Shown piece by piece: positions 9,425 through 60,067 of a DNA stretch of 64,000 bases (the first letter of the stretch is position 1; each line of letters starts with the position of its first letter). A program made the position numbers and the translations under genes. The notes under the pieces are model-generated. The model did no database searches. It was not told the DNA's origin and saw only the letters and a list, made by a program, of their open reading frames with translations. The stretch is from Thiemannella venezuelensis. Lineage in GTDB: Bacteria; Actinomycetota; Actinomycetes; Streptosporangiales; Streptosporangiaceae. The stretch spans positions 558,001 to 622,000 of the forward strand of contig NZ_JACHJJ010000001.1 in assembly GCF_014203605.1 (NCBI RefSeq). The letters run 5' to 3'.

Positions 9425-10288
9425 ATGAGTAAGACCGAGGCCGTACGGCTGGCCGTGCGCAAGACGTACAAGCTGTACATCGGCGGGGCGTTCCCCCGTT
9501 CGGAGAGCGGAAGGTCCTACGCGGTGACCTCCTCCAAGGGCGACTTCCTGGCCAACGCGTCCAAGGCCTCCCGCAAGGACGCCCGCGACGCGGTGTCCGC
9601 CGCGCGCAAGGCCTTCCCCGGCTGGTCCGGCGCGACCGCCTACAACCGGGGGCAGATCCTCTACCGGATCGCCGAGATGCTGGAGGGCCGCCGGGCGCAG
9701 TTCGTCGCCGAGCTGACCGAGGCGGGCGCCAAGAAGGCCGGGGACGCCGTGGACGCGGCCGTCGACCGGCTGGTCTGGTACGCCGGGTGGTCGGACAAGA
9801 TCACCTCGGTCGCCGGGGCGGCCAACCCGGTCGCCGGGCCGTACTTCAACATCTCCACCCCCGAGCCGACCGGCGTCGTCGCGGTGGTCGCCCCGGCCGA
9901 CCCGCTGCTCGGGCTCGTCTCGGTGGTCGCCCCGGTGATCGTCACCGGCAACACGTGCGTCGTGGTCGCGAGCGAGCGGGCCCCGCTGCCCTCGATCACG
10001 CTGGCCGAGGTGCTCGCCACCTCGGACCTGCCCGGCGGGGTGGTGAACGTCCTCACCGGCTCGGTGAAGGAGATCGCCCCCTGGCTGGCCGCGCACATGG
10101 ACGTCAACGCCGTCGACCTGACCGGCGTCGCCGACGACGACCTGGCGGTCGCGTGCGAGCAGGCCGCGGCGGAGAACCTCAAGCGGGTCCTGCGCCCGTC
10201 CGCGCCCGACTGGTCCGCCGATCCGGGCCTCAAGCGGATGACGGCCTTCCTGGAGACCAAGACCGTCTGGCACCCCACCGGGTTCTGA
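9425..10288 (+). CDS. half-length aldehyde dehydrogenase-family protein lacking the catalytic domain
   Basis: The product, 287 aa, matches only the cofactor-binding half of ALDH proteins. It has the N-terminal LYIGGAFPRSESG start, a Rossmann region with VVAVVAPADPLLG where active enzymes have PWN, and GGVVNVLTGS. It then ends with a short tail (WHPTGF). The Glu and Cys catalytic region is absent, and no frameshift or missing stop explains the loss, so this is the gene's real length. It follows the complete ALDH by 182 bp and is preceded by GAGAGG. It may pair with the complete subunit as a regulatory or structural partner (inference). The intervening 182 bp contain no convincing gene. Confidence 0.85.
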   Translation: MSKTEAVRLAVRKTYKLYIGGAFPRSESGRSYAVTSSKGDFLANASKASRKDARDAVSAARKAFPGWSGATAYNRGQILYRIAEMLEGRRAQFVAELTEAGAKKAGDAVDAAVDRLVWYAGWSDKITSVAGAANPVAGPYFNISTPEPTGVVAVVAPADPLLGLVSVVAPVIVTGNTCVVVASERAPLPSITLAEVLATSDLPGGVVNVLTGSVKEIAPWLAAHMDVNAVDLTGVADDDLAVACEQAAAENLKRVLRPSAPDWSADPGLKRMTAFLETKTVWHPTGF

Positions 10289-10291
10289 TCT

Positions 10292-10336
10292 CCCCGCCCC
10301 GCCTCGCTCATGGAGCCGGGGCGGGGCGTTCCTTTC
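10292..10336 (+). terminator. hairpin terminator ending the deoC operon
   Basis: Perfect 9-bp stem CCCCGCCCC (10292-10300) with GGGGCGGGG (10318-10326). A smaller GCTC/GAGC pair lies inside the loop, and a T-rich stretch follows. It sits four bases after the stop of the half-length ALDH gene. Confidence 0.8.
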
Positions 10337-10575
10337 GGAGGGTCGGCCGGATGGGCCGGGAGTTGAGCCGACGGCAGGACTCCCTTGTCGGCCGATGCCG
10401 TTGTCGAACCCAGCTCGGCGAGTTCGTGCGGTGATGTCTCGTATTGATCACCGGGTCCGCTGTGACGCCCCTCAAGACAGCGGCATCTGAAGCACGTACA
10501 GTTACGGTATCGGCTCGTGCGGATTTTCCACACGGATCGGTATGTAAGCCTCATCTGGAGGGGGTTAACCCGCTC
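10337..10575. other. boundary between the deoC operon and a low-GC insert; probable promoter region
   Basis: No gene is seen. G+C falls steadily across this stretch into the ATPase gene. Toward its right end are AT-richer words such as GTTACGGTAT and TGGAGGGGGTTAA, the last serving as a ribosome site for the gene at 10576. No clear attachment site or terminal inverted repeat was found. Confidence 0.4.
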
Positions 10576-11847
10576 ATGCTGCTGAGTTTCCGTGTAACCA
10601 ACCATAGATCGCTCCGTGGTGAGCAACAACTCCTGTTGACGCCCGGTTACGGCACGGACAGCTCTCAAAACAGGGTTTCGGAAGCCGTTCCGGTGATCGG
10701 CCTGTTCGGGCCGAATGCTTCTGGAAAGTCGAACGTCATAGACGGGCTGGTCTACATGCGCGACCTCGTCCGGGGATCGCTTCGCGAGAACGAACCCGGG
10801 GCCGGGATCGAACGCCAGCCCTTCGCTCTGGACCCTGTAGCCAGGGAGGAACCGTCCACGTATGTCGTCGATCTCCTGATCAATGATGTCAGATACACGT
10901 ACGGTGTGGCGGTCGATGATGCACGGGTGGTTGAAGAATGGATGTTCAGCTATCCCCTCAAAAAAAAGAGGACTATATTTCATAGGCGTTTTGATGACTA
11001 CTCTTATGGAGAACGCTCTCCGGATTCAATGCGACAAGTTGCGGATATCACAGACTCCAATGTCCTTTTCTTGTCAATTGCTGCGCGGTCGAAGCAGGAG
11101 CTGGTGAGGCCGGTTTACGACTGGTTCACGGGAGTCCTGGCCCGCAGTCCATGGAGTCCTCGGTTCGCGCGACGGTCCATAGCCGAGTCGCTCGATCGTC
11201 TGGGACTCCTCGGAAGGATAACCGATCTTCTGCGTGCGGCCGATACTGGGATCGAATCCGCAGAGATCGTCGAAGAAACCGATGCGGAGCTCGCAGAGAG
11301 GTCCATGCGAATAAAGGGAATCGAAGGATATTCTCCGGAGCGGCGCAAGGACATACGGTTCAGGCACAGAGGTGAGGATGGGACTTTTTTACTGAGTCTC
11401 CACGACCAGTCCCTCGGAACGCGAACCCTTTACGAGTTGGGTTTTGACGTGCTCAGAGTGCTCGATCGAGGAGCGATTTTGATCGTTGATGAGATCGATT
11501 CGAGCCTCCATCCTTACTTGACGGCCCAGCTTGTCAAACTGTTCAACGACCCAGAGGTGAATCGTCACGGGGCCCAGCTCGTCTTCAGTAGTCACGATGC
11601 CACGCTTCTCGGCAGGATTCAGGGTGAAGAGGTACTGCGCCGCGACTCGATCTGGTTCACTGAAAAGGACGAGCACGGTGCGACGGAGCTGTTCCCTCTG
11701 ACGGACTTCAAGCCTCGCCGTGACGAGAACCGGGAACGCCGCTATCTGGCCGGTCGCTACGGAGCTGTTCCCATCGTCAGCGACAACCTGTTCGCCGCCG
11801 CCCTGGCAACACGCGGAGAGGCAGGCGATGTCTCGTCGAACCCCTAG
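10576..11847 (+). CDS. AAA/ABC-type ATPase, RloA/AbiLi-like defence component
   Basis: 423-aa SMC/OLD-like single-protein ATPase. It starts with the typical LLSFRVTNHRSLRGEQQLLL, followed by Walker A GPNASGKSN at residues 45-53. An ABC-type signature is seen in SLGTRTLYEL, Walker B is ILIVDEIDSSLHP, and the switch His lies in FSSHDATLL. This is the AAA_21/AAA_15 arrangement of the ATPases in AbiL, Septu and PARIS-type systems. The start 10576 is taken over an in-frame start at 10444 because the conserved N terminus begins there and GGAGGGG lies upstream. It overlaps the RloB-like gene by 20 bases. G+C is far below the neighbours (lines near 40-50 %), suggesting transfer. Role as sensor/ATPase of a defence pair is inferred. 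Confidence 0.85.
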   Translation: MLLSFRVTNHRSLRGEQQLLLTPGYGTDSSQNRVSEAVPVIGLFGPNASGKSNVIDGLVYMRDLVRGSLRENEPGAGIERQPFALDPVAREEPSTYVVDLLINDVRYTYGVAVDDARVVEEWMFSYPLKKKRTIFHRRFDDYSYGERSPDSMRQVADITDSNVLFLSIAARSKQELVRPVYDWFTGVLARSPWSPRFARRSIAESLDRLGLLGRITDLLRAADTGIESAEIVEETDAELAERSMRIKGIEGYSPERRKDIRFRHRGEDGTFLLSLHDQSLGTRTLYELGFDVLRVLDRGAILIVDEIDSSLHPYLTAQLVKLFNDPEVNRHGAQLVFSSHDATLLGRIQGEEVLRRDSIWFTEKDEHGATELFPLTDFKPRRDENRERRYLAGRYGAVPIVSDNLFAAALATRGEAGDVSSNP

Positions 11848-12439
11848 GGATGAAAGGTCGAGGAAGAAGATTCAAACGGAAACAGATCTCGGGCGCAGGA
11901 GAGGCGGTGTGCGCCAGGAGCGGCCATCGTTCCTGATTCTCTGTGAAGGGAAGACCGAGAGAGACTACTTCATCGGCATGAGATCCCGTCGTGGACCGCA
12001 AATCGATGTCGACATTCCTGATGTCGACCATCTTTCCATCGTGCGGGAGGCGACCGTTCGGAAGTCGGACGAATACAGTTCCATCTGGTGTGCTCTGGAC
12101 ACCGAGCTCGACCATGCGCTGACGGCCAGACTTGTCGACGAGGCCCGTCGCGGAGAGGTCAACCTGTGCCTGTCCACTCCATGTTTCGAGGTCTGGCTCA
12201 TCCTGCACCACGCGGACTGTGCAAGGCCTTTTCAGTCCGCAGAAGAGGCCAAGAAGAAGCTGAAGTCCCTTGTCCGGTCCTGGAGCGAGGGAAGTACCCG
12301 GTTCTCTGATTTCTCTCACGGGATCGAAGTCGCCTGCGGCCGGTCGCGGAAGCTCGATCCCACTGGAGGCGAGGTCCTGAAGAACCCTTCGACAAACGCC
12401 TGGAAGCTGGTCGCCGAGATCCAGGAAGAACCAGAGTAG
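11828..12439 (+). CDS. RloB-like protein with TOPRIM-type acidic motifs, AbiLii-like
   Basis: 203-aa partner of the ATPase. A basic N terminus (about 30 residues) leads into PSFLILCEGKTERDYF, the RloB family hallmark. The Glu in CEGKTE and the acidic LDTELDH sequence match the E and DxD-like positions of TOPRIM nuclease folds. The second aspartate of the classical DxD is a Glu here. The later motif TPCFEVWLILHH is also typical of RloB. It begins inside the end of the ATPase gene with GGAGAGG upstream, so the two are translationally coupled. Known relatives occur with restriction-modification loci and as AbiLii. Nuclease activity is a family-based expectation, not shown here. Confidence 0.82.
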   Translation: MSRRTPRDERSRKKIQTETDLGRRRGGVRQERPSFLILCEGKTERDYFIGMRSRRGPQIDVDIPDVDHLSIVREATVRKSDEYSSIWCALDTELDHALTARLVDEARRGEVNLCLSTPCFEVWLILHHADCARPFQSAEEAKKKLKSLVRSWSEGSTRFSDFSHGIEVACGRSRKLDPTGGEVLKNPSTNAWKLVAEIQEEPE

Positions 12440-12494
12440 ACATGCCGTGACCCCGCCTCCGCGAGCCCGGTCCCAGCGATGTATGGCGCCCGTT

Positions 12495-13901
12495 TCAGGC
12501 GGGCGGGGCGTGCCGGGGCCAGGGGGCGGCCTGCTCCAGGCAGGCGGCCAGCGTCAGCAGCTGGGCCTCGCCGCCGGGGGCCGCGACGAGCTGCACGCCG
12601 ATCGGCAGGCCGCTGGAGTGCCTGCCGTACGGGACGGTCATGGCCGGCCAGCCGGCCACGTTCCAGGCGGCGGTGGCGGGGGCGTAGGTCAGGTTGGCGC
12701 GGGCGTTGCGCAGCAGGCCGCGGCGGCCCCAGCGCTCGGCCCGCGGCGGGACCATCGCCAGCGCCGGGGAGACGAGCACGTCGGCGTCGCCGAACCACTG
12801 GTCGGCGCCGTTGGCCCGCCAGCGGTCGCGGCCCTTCGCGCCGTCCAGCCCGAACGCGCCGAGGACCCGTCCGGCGCGGGCCAGGGCCCTGGTCCGCCGC
12901 TCCAGTCTCCGCCGGTCGAGCCCGGCCGCGTCCTCGCGGGCCAGCGCGAACCAGGTGGCGACCGCGGCCGAGCCGAGCCAGACCGGCAGCCGCGCGCCGT
13001 GCTCCACGACCGTGTGCCCGGCCTCGCCGAGCACCCGCGCCGCGCCGGTCACCGCCTCCTGGAACTCCCGGTCCACCGCGAACCCGGGCGGGAGCGGGCG
13101 GGGGGCGACGGCGACGCGGAGCCGTACCGGCTCGGCGGTGGTCAGCCCGCCCGGGTAGTCGTCGATCGAGTCGCCCACCCGCAGGGACTCGCTCTTGCCG
13201 GGTGTGGCCAGGGACATGTCGCCGGCCATCACGGCCAGGGCGAGGGCGAGGTCGGCCACCGTCGTGGCGAGCGGGCCGTTCTCCGACATGCCGTGCCAGT
13301 CGGGCTCGGGCGGGGGGACCACCCCCAGGCCCGGCTTGATGGAGACGATCCCGCAGCAGGCGGCGGGGATGCGCAGCGAGCCGAGCCCGTCGGTGCCGTG
13401 GGCCAGCGGGACCATCCCCGCCGCCACCGCCGCGGCGCTTCCGCCCGACGACCCGCCGGGCGTGCGCCCGGGATCCCACGGGTTGCGGGCCACGCCGTAC
13501 ACGCTGTCGGAGAACCCGGCCAGGCAGAGTTCCGGCACGTTGGTGATCCCCACGACCACCGCGCCCGCCGCGCGGAGCCTGGCGACCACGGGATGGTCCT
13601 CGGCCGCGGGCGCGTCCGGCGTGGCGGCCGAGCCGGAGCGGAACGCCTCCCCGCGGACCGGGACGTTGTCCTTGACCGCCACCGGCACCCCGGCGAGCGG
13701 CAGCTCCGCCAGGTCCTCCCGTTCCTGTACGGCGCCGGCCTCGGCGAGCGCCTGCTCGGCCCTGACCACGCGGAACGCCCCGACGCGCCCGTCCCGCTCG
13801 GCGATCGCCCGCAGGTGCTCCGCGACGACCGCCTGAGCGGTGACCCTGCCCCGTCGTACGGCTTCCGCGATCTCGACTGCGGACCTTCCCACCCACGACA
13901 T
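12495..13901 (-). CDS. amidase signature family enzyme
   Basis: 468-aa amide hydrolase from ATG 13901 (MSWVGRSAVEIAEAV). The Ser-cisSer-Lys triad is recognisable: Lys in VAVKDN, the bridging Ser in GGSSGGSAAAVA, and the nucleophile Ser in GTDGLGSLRIPAACCG. In that last motif the usual GG before the Ser is LG, a mild deviation. It begins 59 bp downstream of the small ribbon-helix-helix gene on the same strand and converges on the RloB gene. Substrate is not predictable. It has no GatB/GatC neighbour, so it is not a tRNA amidotransferase subunit by context. Confidence 0.9.
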   Translation of the reverse strand: MSWVGRSAVEIAEAVRRGRVTAQAVVAEHLRAIAERDGRVGAFRVVRAEQALAEAGAVQEREDLAELPLAGVPVAVKDNVPVRGEAFRSGSAATPDAPAAEDHPVVARLRAAGAVVVGITNVPELCLAGFSDSVYGVARNPWDPGRTPGGSSGGSAAAVAAGMVPLAHGTDGLGSLRIPAACCGIVSIKPGLGVVPPPEPDWHGMSENGPLATTVADLALALAVMAGDMSLATPGKSESLRVGDSIDDYPGGLTTAEPVRLRVAVAPRPLPPGFAVDREFQEAVTGAARVLGEAGHTVVEHGARLPVWLGSAAVATWFALAREDAAGLDRRRLERRTRALARAGRVLGAFGLDGAKGRDRWRANGADQWFGDADVLVSPALAMVPPRAERWGRRGLLRNARANLTYAPATAAWNVAGWPAMTVPYGRHSSGLPIGVQLVAAPGGEAQLLTLAACLEQAAPWPRHAPPA

Positions 13902-13960
13902 GCACCGAGTGTGGTCCTGCGGGCGCTTCGAGGGGAAGTGCCCGTGTCGCAATCGAGGTC

Positions 13961-14131
13961 TCAATCGGGTGACTTGTCTTTCCTGGGGTCGCGGCCCGCT
14001 TCCTTCAGCGCCAGGCGCAGCGCGTACTCGATCTGCGCGTTGACGCTGCGCAGGTCGTCGGCCGCCCACCTGGCGATCGCCTCGTAGACGGCCGGATCGA
14101 GCCTGAGCAGGAGCTTCTTGCGTTCCGGCAT
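13961..14131 (-). CDS. small ribbon-helix-helix (Arc-like) DNA-binding protein
   Basis: 56-aa protein starting MPERKKLLLRLDPAVYEAIA. The pattern is a short beta strand (KLLLRL) followed by two helices, the second with VNAQIEYALRLALKEAG, typical of Arc/CopG/HicB-antitoxin folds. It starts four bases after the stop of the SPFH gene. It has no good ribosome site of its own, so it is probably coupled to it. No toxin gene adjoins. It could be an autoregulator binding the palindrome ahead of the operon (inference). Confidence 0.75.
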   Translation of the reverse strand: MPERKKLLLRLDPAVYEAIARWAADDLRSVNAQIEYALRLALKEAGRDPRKDKSPD

Positions 14132-58222: not shown

Positions 58223-60067
58223 GTGGATTTCGCTGAGCTGTCAACACTGATTGCTGATCTTCGTAGTGAAGGAAGTGACTTCGCAGAGGTTGAGGTCAAG
58301 CAGGCCGCCGGGGGTTTTCCGGTGTCTCTCGCCCCCACTCTGTCGGCCTTCGCCAACACTCCTGGCGGAGGGATACTGATATTTGGCCTGGACGAGTCGG
58401 ACTTCTTCAAGGTTGTAGGTGTATATGACGTTTCTGCCTGCAAGTCTGCGCTGGCCTCCGTATCCAGAAACGGCCTCGAGCCGCCCGTCAACCCTCAGAG
58501 TTGGGACTTCGTAGTAGACGGACAAGCGGTTGTTGTGGCAAAGGTCGAAGAAATTTCCGGGTCTGTGAAGCCCTGTAGGGTCCGGTCAACGGGTAAGGCA
58601 TATCTTCGCTCCTATGATGGCGATTACGAGCTCTCCCAGCTCGAGGAGCAGTCATTTATTGCGAACCGGGACACTCCTCGATTCGATCAGTCCACGGTGG
58701 AAGGAGCCACTCTGGAAGATCTGGATGAAGAGCTTGTAGGTTCGTATGTTGACGCTTGCCGTTCAAGTTCGGCAGCGTTATCGCGTATGAAAGACCTGGA
58801 TATTCTTTTTCGGACCGGAGTAGTCTCAGGATCCGATAGGAAGCCCACGGTTGCGGGAATCCTTTCTTTGGGAGTGTATCCTCAACAGTTTTTTCCGAAC
58901 CTGGTCATACAGGCTAGTGCCGCCCCTGGCCCCGGCGATCCCAAAGGGACCAGAGTTGTTGATGCGAAAAGATTTGACGGCCCTATTCCGCTGATGCTGG
59001 ACCAAGCCTTGAGGTGGGTGCAGAGAAATACGAGAACCCGGGTCAGGTTCGGCCAGGACGGGCATGGCAGGGATGAATTAGAATATCCCATGGAAGCTGT
59101 CCGTGAACTACTTTCAAACTCTCTTGTGCATCGTGATCTCGGGCCGTACGCCCTAGGCGAGGCGATCACGCTGAGGATTGAGAACTCTCAGCTTGTCCTA
59201 AGTAATCCGGGCGGCCTCTGGGGGCTTTCGGTAGATCGACTCGGAAAAACGGGAGTTACGTCCGCGCGTAACGGCTACTTGGTCAGAATATGCCAAAATG
59301 TTCGACTTGGGCGTGAGCAACGTGTCGTTGAAGCGCTTGCGTCCGGAATTCCCACGGTACTGCGGAGCCTTCGAGAGGCGGGTATGGTGCCTCCACGGTT
59401 TCACGATCAAGGTGTTCGATTCACAGTACGAGTTCCAAACCATGCCCTGCTTTCTCCGTCAGACCTTGAATGGCTCTCAGAGGTAAACTCATCGACTCCG
59501 TTGAGCGATATACAGCGCCATGCCCTCGTGGCGATGCGCCATGGCATCCGATGGACCAACAAAACTCTTCGTGACGCCTTTCCAATGGACTCGCTGGAGG
59601 CCCGAAATATCTTGGCCGGCCTCGTGGACGCGGGTGTCGCGGAAGCCGTGGGAGAGCGTGGCGGGCGCGTATACCGATTAGCGCAAGGCTTGGGGAGTCT
59701 TGTTCCTGTCCAAGTTCAGCAATATCTCTTCCTGGGATCGGAGGAGAACGCAGGACAAGTGCAGCCGCCTGTTCCTCGGGAGAGTGAAGCCCTTCGCCCT
59801 GGCGCAAGGTCGGCGCCCCGCTCGAAGGGAGCGCGCCGGTTAAACGCGAAGCTGATAATGCAACTACTCGCTTCCGGTCCTGCTTCGATGCTGCAACTTT
59901 GCAGTATGACCGGTTTTTCCGAGCGGCAGGTTCAATATGCTTTAGCGCTCCTTAAGGAAGAAGGGGATGTCGTTCTTCTCGGGGGGAGGGGGGATCGCAC
60001 CAGCAAGTGGATTCTTACTTCTCAGATGAATGACCAGACGGATTCGGACGGTAATCCGGAATCTTAA
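58223..60067 (+). CDS. AlbA_2/Schlafen-like and GHKL ATPase-domain protein, probable regulator
   Basis: 614 aa from GTG 58223, likely leaderless. The N-terminal AlbA_2 (Schlafen-like) domain has FAEVEVKQAAGGFP and LSAFANTPGGGILIFGLDE. A GHKL ATP-binding domain follows around residues 290-350 with EYPMEAVRELLSNSLVHRDL. The C-terminal 60 residues are a winged helix (ASMLQLCSMTGFSERQVQYALALLKEEGDVVLL). Such COG2865-type proteins act as transcription regulators or in phage and element conflict. G+C is far lower than around it (about 50 % in places), marking transfer. The operator just upstream suggests autoregulation. Confidence 0.85.
   Translation: MDFAELSTLIADLRSEGSDFAEVEVKQAAGGFPVSLAPTLSAFANTPGGGILIFGLDESDFFKVVGVYDVSACKSALASVSRNGLEPPVNPQSWDFVVDGQAVVVAKVEEISGSVKPCRVRSTGKAYLRSYDGDYELSQLEEQSFIANRDTPRFDQSTVEGATLEDLDEELVGSYVDACRSSSAALSRMKDLDILFRTGVVSGSDRKPTVAGILSLGVYPQQFFPNLVIQASAAPGPGDPKGTRVVDAKRFDGPIPLMLDQALRWVQRNTRTRVRFGQDGHGRDELEYPMEAVRELLSNSLVHRDLGPYALGEAITLRIENSQLVLSNPGGLWGLSVDRLGKTGVTSARNGYLVRICQNVRLGREQRVVEALASGIPTVLRSLREAGMVPPRFHDQGVRFTVRVPNHALLSPSDLEWLSEVNSSTPLSDIQRHALVAMRHGIRWTNKTLRDAFPMDSLEARNILAGLVDAGVAEAVGERGGRVYRLAQGLGSLVPVQVQQYLFLGSEENAGQVQPPVPRESEALRPGARSAPRSKGARRLNAKLIMQLLASGPASMLQLCSMTGFSERQVQYALALLKEEGDVVLLGGRGDRTSKWILTSQMNDQTDSDGNPES

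What the first reader, a model, noticed from the sequence alone, without database searches (positions are those of the whole stretch)
10576..12439. Low-GC RloA/RloB (AbiL-like) two-gene defence module
Seen: a 423-aa ATPase with GPNASGKSN, DEIDSS and an H-loop overlaps by 20 bases a 203-aa protein with CEGKTE and LDTELD. G+C drops sharply for exactly this stretch. Known: ATPase plus RloB is the make-up of AbiL and of RloAB accessory genes in restriction loci. Inference: horizontally acquired phage defence. The host-side trigger and target remain open.
Basis: partly seen in the sequence, partly recalled or inferred. Interest (0 to 1): 0.65.

Follow-up and report, generated by a model that had tools for sequence, protein, structure and literature searches.

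The report
Acquired two-gene AbiL phage-defence module
Two overlapping genes, an ATPase and a probable RNA- or DNA-cutting partner, form a known kind of bacterial anti-virus module (AbiL) that was inserted between two ordinary metabolic genes; it is an ordinary new copy, and its main extra interest is that the same spot holds other defence-like genes in some related bacteria.

Summary
A 423-aa ABC/SMC-type ATPase (10576-11847) overlaps by 20 bases a 203-aa RloB protein (11828-12439). PADLOC names them AbiLi (2.4e-87) and AbiLii (3.1e-25); Pfam gives AAA_21 and RloB over cut-off. G+C falls to 55-60% against roughly 70-80% outside; codon usage is far off the window's norm. Relatives show the empty site: the flanking ALDH and amidase genes lie at most 305 bp apart in 21 of 32 relatives measured, 34 bp in a close one. 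The one other genome of the genus that was listed lacks the module. So it is a horizontally acquired AbiL. The R-M-linked part of 'RloAB' is not met among the neighbours scanned. Likely mechanism: the ATPase senses infection and holds or licenses RloB, a TOPRIM-type nuclease toxin; trigger and target are unknown, the TOPRIM fold is only weakly supported, and published precedent is mixed. Added here: the site is an insertion hotspot; 3 of 33 sites carry defence or TA-like cassettes, and these are the three filled sites with low G+C. Known kind, low interest.

The parts
10576..11847 (+). AbiLi-type ABC/SMC-like ATPase (423 aa), probable sensor/regulator; Walker A G45-x-N-A-S-G-K51, signature S279-x-G-T282, Walker B D305-E306, H-loop H340
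   Evidence: PADLOC AbiLi 2.4e-87, best of 63 families; Pfam AAA_21 144.4 bits, cut-off 27; motifs invariant or nearly so in 13 sequences; Rad50/SMC and PtuA folds at Z 16.8-20.0 in the 50 rows listed
11828..12439 (+). AbiLii / RloB-like effector (203 aa), probable TOPRIM-type nuclease; E40-G-x-T-E44 and D91-x-E93
   Evidence: Pfam RloB 87.1 bits, cut-off 31.5, profile 1-195 of 195; PADLOC AbiLii 3.1e-25, best stretch profile 15-87 of 170; G41, T43, E44, D91 invariant in 11 sequences, E40 in 10 of 11
11828..11847 (+). 20-base overlap of the two genes, suggesting one transcript and coupled translation (inference)
   Evidence: coordinates; sequence
10308..12493 (.). approximate extent of the inserted DNA between ALDH and amidase genes (boundaries to within about 10-20 bases, read by eye from one close empty site)
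   Evidence: relative L084 (G171) has 34 bp between the tblastn match ends of the two genes, the window 2213 bp
9425..10288 (+). left flank: half-length aldehyde dehydrogenase homologue (287 aa), conserved in relatives
   Evidence: Pfam Aldedh, profile 12-232 of 461; 79-93% identical in the 32 relatives measured
12495..14069 (-). right flank: amidase, convergent with the left flank (start codon uncertain; homologues often align only from about residue 43-53)
   Evidence: Pfam Amidase 7.5e-80; relatives

Best explanation
A horizontally acquired AbiL-type abortive-infection module. SHOWN: the two genes belong to the AbiLi (ABC/SMC-like ATPase) and AbiLii (RloB) families, the conserved motif residues are intact, the genes overlap on one strand, and they occupy an intergenic site that is empty in most measured relatives. 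INFERRED: AbiLi, probably as a dimer or larger ATP-bound assembly, keeps AbiLii silent or unlicensed; a phage-made protein or damage signal changes AbiLi; AbiLii, a metal-dependent TOPRIM-type nuclease, is then released or activated and cuts nucleic acid (I favour host RNA such as tRNA, by analogy with PARIS AriB), halting the cell before phage are made. Identity as AbiL I would put at about 0.95; the figure below is for the whole statement with its mechanism.
For: Family profiles. Conserved Walker A/B, signature and H-loop and E-G-x-T-E / D-x-[DE] in RloB. Over 100 genomes (window's own included) a RloB match lies 56-182 bases downstream on the same strand of an AbiLi match in 22 of 28 AbiLi loci, that is 22 of 27 RloB loci. 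In the genome contigs set RloB follows AbiLi in 12 of 14 loci. The ATPase model resembles Rad50/SMC heads and the defence ATPases PtuA of Septu and retrons. RloB profile against an OLD TOPRIM profile: motif 1 pairs with VEG-type motif 1 at E 0.0043, and the D-x-D/E motif pairs as a second hit, but at E 0.42; five control proteins gave 0.28-0.89. Patchy distribution: 17 of 100 genomes have AbiLi at E <= 1e-30 and 16 of 100 have RloB, the window's own counted in both. Plasmid records with AbiLi relatives: 125 of 72,556. Passages read: PMC10440598 (RloB homologue D44 with AAA ATPase D29 from C. algidicarnis shown in the figure legend of toxicity-neutralisation pairs; HHPred links RloB to OLD_TOPRIM) and PMC12409363 (AbiL listed with PARIS and OLD; AriA holds AriB, AriB cuts tRNA).
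Against: PMC3985639 passages: L. lactis AbiLii was not toxic in E. coli, and F. nucleatum AbiLi did not neutralise its toxic AbiLii, so simple sequestration is not general. The TOPRIM fold is not firmly shown: hhalign probability 8% for motif 1 and 0.1% for motif 2, the latter no better than controls, and the controls were single sequences while the OLD side was a 12-sequence profile; Foldseek's one hit at E <= 0.001 is a lumazine synthase; OLD chains 6nk8 and 6njx come at Z 7.8 (rmsd 4.2, 146 aligned) and 6.7 (rmsd 4.5, 144 aligned), not above unrelated Rossmann-like chains at up to 8.3. No Pfam TOPRIM family matches any of 11 RloB members up to E 10. E40 is G in one of 11. 6 of 28 AbiLi loci have no RloB match beside them and 5 of 27 RloB loci no AbiLi. 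No trigger, substrate or phage phenotype is known here.
Confidence: 0.6

Rival explanations
1. AbiL member, but the RloB effector cuts DNA (OLD/Gabija-like) instead of RNA, so infection is stopped by phage or host DNA degradation.
For: The motif that aligns best is to OLD-type TOPRIM, and the two OLD C-terminal chains are the longest-aligned of the 50 solved structures listed for RloB (146 and 144 residues).
Against: PARIS AriB, the two-gene ATPase/TOPRIM effector whose chemistry I read about, cuts tRNA (PMC12409363 passages). Nothing here separates DNA from RNA.
Confidence: 0.25
2. A selfish toxin-antitoxin (addiction) cassette kept by linkage, with no real role against phage.
For: An RloB-type D44 / AAA D29 pair is among the toxicity-neutralisation pairs of PMC10440598 (passages); AbiLi relatives sit on plasmids.
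Against: Lactococcal AbiL was described as a phage abortive infection system (title of Deng 1999 seen in reference lists only); F. nucleatum AbiLi did not act as antitoxin.
Confidence: 0.1
3. A decaying, inactive import: foreign codon usage and a TTA codon leave it poorly expressed, and the family decays readily in this group.
For: Low codon adaptation and one TTA codon in AbiLi. All three nearest relatives (Nonomuraea, 71-74%) are disrupted as deposited: AbiLi of L004 is split by an inserted transposase-like gene, AbiLii of L002 is frameshifted towards its end and AbiLii of L003 near its start; assembly error is not excluded for the two shifts. This third disruption was found on re-check and raised the odds slightly.
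Against: Both window frames are full-length and the conserved motif residues are kept.
Confidence: 0.12

Closest known systems
AbiL (AbiLi + AbiLii, Lactococcus lactis type)
   Same: Both PADLOC profiles match; two-gene operon as described for abiLi/abiLii in PMC3985639 passages
   Different: Actinomycete chromosome; nearest relatives seen are 71-74% identical Nonomuraea copies; activity untested. The lactococcal proteins themselves were not compared
RloA/RloB genes of restriction loci (RloB context as described in PMC10440598 passages)
   Same: RloB family protein with an AAA ATPase partner
   Different: No R-M gene among the seven neighbours scanned here
PARIS (AriA + AriB)
   Same: Two-gene ATPase + TOPRIM-type effector logic; an AriA profile also matches (4.7e-40), though that model has the same 304 positions as generic AAA_21
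   Different: Second gene is RloB/AbiLii; no other family of Pfam or PADLOC matches it
Septu / retron PtuA ATPases, Rad50/SMC heads
   Same: ATPase fold (Z 16.8-20.0 in the rows listed)
   Different: Partner matches RloB only, not an HNH nuclease family

Membership tests
AbiL | AbiLi-family ATPase | tested here: met
   PADLOC AbiLi 2.4e-87, best of 63 families
AbiL | AbiLii / RloB-family second protein | tested here: met
   PADLOC AbiLii 3.1e-25, the only match up to E 1; Pfam RloB 87.1 bits over cut-off 31.5
AbiL | adjacent two-gene unit, ATPase first | tested here: met
   20-base overlap; same order in 22 of 28 AbiLi loci over 100 genomes, own included
AbiL | abortive infection phenotype | not testable with these tools
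   needs phage assays
RloAB of restriction loci | linked to type I R-M genes | tested here: not met
   seven other genes over about 6.9-15.9 kb scanned by Pfam: DeoC, two Aldedh, Amidase, Band_7, one with weak RHH-type matches below cut-off, one without match; none is an R-M gene. Genes further away were not scanned for this
PARIS | AriB-type (not RloB) second protein | tested here: not met
   only AbiLii and RloB models match the second protein
TOPRIM nuclease | conserved E in an E-G-x-x-[DE] loop plus D-x-[DE] (pattern recalled) | tested here: met
   window protein has both; E40 in 10 of 11, G41, T43, E44 and D91 in 11 of 11, position 93 D or E in all 11 by eye
TOPRIM nuclease | TOPRIM fold | tested here: inconclusive
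   model pLDDT 85.6; OLD chains Z 7.8 and 6.7, not above unrelated folds; profile hits E 0.0043 and 0.42, probability 8% and 0.1%
TOPRIM nuclease | metal-dependent nuclease activity | not testable with these tools
   needs enzyme assay

The most novel reading that the evidence does not exclude
The gap between the convergent ALDH-like and amidase genes is a small chromosomal docking site of this actinomycete family that takes up single cassettes without integrase or tRNA (checked for the window copy only) and exchanges different immune modules: AbiL here, PDC-M55 in G016, a RosmerTA-like HTH/ImmA plus DUF3368 pair in G168, other cargo or nothing elsewhere.
Probability: 0.4. Interest if true: 0.4.

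Novelty: new member of a known kind. Interest (0 to 1): 0.22.

Why it matters
It adds a well-bounded, intact actinomycete AbiL with a mapped empty site, useful for deletion and transfer tests of an Abi family whose trigger and target I found no account of in the passages read. The site itself is a cheap place to look for unknown defence cassettes in this family, because all three low-G+C fillings longer than 1 kb found there look like defence or TA modules.

Tried and rejected
Flanking repeats: direct- and inverted-repeat search over 10200-12600 gave only short pairs that look like chance; a 14-base pair at 10319 and 12501 is G+C-rich and overlaps a probable terminator stem and the amidase end, so I do not read it as a target duplication. 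tRNA genes: none in the window. Promoter/terminator scan: one promoter-like site, on the other strand, against 0.4 expected, and three terminator-like sites against 1.7. Sequence search for solved relatives: only weak FtsE/SMC/helicase-type hits for the ATPase and one chance-level hit for RloB. Foldseek for RloB led to lumazine synthases, which I treat as a common Rossmann-like arrangement; no PARIS AriB chain was among the rows listed. NCBIfam gave nothing over cut-off for either protein. I tested whether the second PDC-M55 protein of G016 is RloB-like: no (E 0.57). AriA membership was considered and dropped because the PADLOC AriA model that matches best is as long as generic AAA_21. Phage records: RloB relatives at 25-26% identity in 4 of 50,697 records, two of them the same phage, too distant to say anything about origin. 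Viral contigs and the PHROGs library were not searched. Literature searches with RloB/AbiL terms returned few relevant papers; a search on actinobacterial defence led to PMC10482375, whose passages say nothing on AbiL that I could use.

Limits of the hotspot count. Gaps are measured between ends of best tblastn matches, not stop codons. The 38 loci are six regions chosen after (one of them, G034, is not among the 40 genomes) and 32 of the 34 not yet held among the 40 genomes (G021 and G207, near contig ends, were not fetched). Of the 11 other gaps over 600 bp, PADLOC was run on chosen ORFs of nine; L086 and L102 cargo and the sigma factor of L046 were scanned by Pfam only, L093 and L097 by PADLOC only, and the second ORF of L087 by neither. 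ORFs were picked by a length and codon-position score. There is no matched control site. The pairing counts use coordinates typed from the tables, with split matches merged.

Full report
WHAT IS THERE. Two genes lie head to tail on the + strand. The first (10576-11847, 423 aa) begins at an ATG with GGAGGGGG 11 bases upstream; the open frame continues upstream to TTG 10444, but homologues align from the ATG. The second (11828-12439, 203 aa) starts inside it, overlapping by 20 bases. PADLOC's best match for the first is AbiLi at 2.4e-87, with AriA next at 4.7e-40, and the only match for the second is AbiLii at 3.1e-25. Pfam gives AAA_21 (144.4 bits, cut-off 27) and RloB (87.1 bits, cut-off 31.5, whole profile). 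NCBIfam names neither.

FOREIGN DNA. G+C is 0.55-0.60 inside against 0.68-0.81 outside. Third-position G+C is 0.64 and 0.69 in the two genes against 0.91-0.98 in seven neighbours, and codon adaptation lies 7.0 and 6.0 sd below the mean of 36 background ORFs of the window. Related AbiLi genes of other actinomycetes are often below their flanks too; of 13 loci compared, L054 and L056 are near their flanks and L059 is above them.

EMPTY SITE. The left flank is an aldehyde-dehydrogenase homologue, the right flank a convergent amidase. I looked for the same pair in relatives. Of 38 loci fetched, 32 have both genes in measurable position; the other six (L106, L111-L115) show no match to this ALDH homologue in the stretch fetched and were left out of the count. 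In 21 of the 32 the two matches are 6 to 305 bases apart, one has 636, and ten have over 1 kb; the window has 2213. In L084 (G171, amidase 86-87% identical) the gap is 34 bases, and the sequence before and after it resembles the window on both sides of the module, putting the insert at about 10308-12493 (read by eye). The only other genome of the same genus in the rows listed, G001, has no AbiLi match at E <= 1e-30 and no RloB match and carries different genes at the site: a sigma-70/ECF-type factor and a 423-aa protein without Pfam or PADLOC match. The window's own genome has one match to each gene.

A HOTSPOT. Counting the window, 11 of 33 sites hold over 1 kb. Three hold defence or TA-like cassettes: AbiL in the window (gap G+C 0.586); three genes matching PADLOC PDC-M55 A, B and C at 4e-182, 7.9e-119 and 2e-253 in G016 (L047, gap G+C 0.610); and an HTH/ImmA-type protein matching RmrA (5.9e-27) with a DUF3368 protein (PIN-like by recall) matching PDC-S70 (2.1e-16) in G168 (L110, gap G+C 0.621). 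These are the only gaps over 600 bp below 0.63 G+C. The rest hold ordinary-looking genes: a luciferase-like monooxygenase (L048), leucine-rich-repeat (L100), ARPP-2 (L086) and large ThuA/PKD (L102) proteins, and others with no PADLOC match (L087, L088, L093, L097). No tRNA or clear repeat marks the window copy. Cargo scanning was partial (see Tried and rejected) and there is no matched control site, so enrichment for defence is suggested, not shown.

PARTNERSHIP AND SPREAD. Of 100 genomes, the window's own included, 17 have AbiLi at E <= 1e-30 and 16 have RloB. RloB lies directly downstream of AbiLi in 22 of 28 AbiLi loci and 22 of 27 RloB loci; six AbiLi loci and five RloB loci lack the partner. 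In public genome contigs 14 loci encode an AbiLi relative, from 74% identity in Nonomuraea to 28% in a Patescibacteria and a Cytophagales MAG; 12 of 14 have RloB next to it by tblastn at E <= 1e-4, L010 ends at its contig edge and L009 shows none. None of the three Nonomuraea loci shows the ALDH or amidase flank, so the module sits elsewhere there. As deposited, all three are disrupted: AbiLi of L004 by an inserted gene, AbiLii of L002 and of L003 by frameshifts at different places. 125 of 72,556 plasmid records hold AbiLi relatives at E <= 1e-20, all under 60% identity.

STRUCTURE AND MECHANISM. The ATPase motifs are invariant or nearly so in 13 sequences. The ATPase model (pLDDT 78.4) matches Rad50 and SMC heads and the PtuA ATPases of Septu and retrons. 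RloB keeps G41-x-T43-E44 and D91 in 11 of 11 sequences and E40 in 10 of 11, the TOPRIM pattern (pattern recalled). Its profile against OLD TOPRIM sequences pairs motif 1 at E 0.0043 (probability 8%) and, as a separate hit, motif 2 at E 0.42 (probability 0.1%); five control proteins gave 0.28-0.89, but as single sequences against a 12-sequence profile, so the control is not an even one. The RloB model (pLDDT 85.6) finds OLD C-terminal chains at Z 7.8 and 6.7, not above unrelated Rossmann-like folds. PMC10440598 (passages) states that HHPred relates RloB to OLD_TOPRIM and has a C. algidicarnis RloB-type/AAA pair in its toxicity-neutralisation figure. PMC12409363 (passages) places AbiL with PARIS, OLD, Gabija, retrons and MADS as ABC ATPase plus TOPRIM, and describes how AriA holds AriB, which when freed cuts tRNA. 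PMC3985639 (passages) reports that L. lactis AbiLii was not toxic in E. coli and that F. nucleatum AbiLii was toxic but not neutralised by its AbiLi. I therefore favour an ATPase sensor that holds or licenses a TOPRIM-type nuclease; holding versus licensing, RNA versus DNA, and the trigger are open.

VERDICT. It is a new member of a known kind. The recurrent use of the ALDH-amidase gap by unlike defence-type cassettes is the part that goes beyond routine annotation. On re-check I lowered the mechanism confidence from 0.62 to 0.60, because the second TOPRIM motif pairs no better than controls, and raised the decay rival from 0.10 to 0.12.

Noticed in passing
window 58223-60067 (+): Second low-G+C gene in the window (614 aa, third-position G+C 0.55): Schlafen AlbA_2 plus HATPase_c_4 (Pfam), weaker PADLOC matches to pAgo/Aga models; possibly another acquired defence-related gene.
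   Followed up: partly
L047:3125-7097 (G016, ALDH-amidase gap): Low-G+C three-gene cassette matching PADLOC PDC-M55 A, B, C at the same chromosomal site as the AbiL.
   Followed up: partly
L110:10265-12048 (G168, ALDH-amidase gap): Low-G+C HTH/ImmA-type (RmrA-like) protein overlapping a DUF3368 / PDC-S70 protein at the same site.
   Followed up: partly
L004:8733-10341 (Nonomuraea corallina): AbiLi relative split by about 1.6 kb holding a 495-aa transposase-like ORF on the other strand (IS66-like by recall, not tested).
   Followed up: partly
L002 and L003, AbiLii genes (Nonomuraea): Both AbiLii copies are frameshifted as deposited, at different places (towards the end in L002, near the start in L003), beside full-length AbiLi frames; loss of the toxin partner or assembly error.
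   Followed up: partly
window 9425-10288 (+): A half-length aldehyde-dehydrogenase homologue (Aldedh profile positions 12-232 of 461) sits beside a full-length one and is 79-93% identical in the 32 relatives measured, so it is not a fresh truncation.
   Followed up: no
window 10576-11847 (+): AbiLi holds one TTA codon while the seven neighbours scanned hold none; TTA codons tie expression to development in some actinomycetes (recalled).
   Followed up: no
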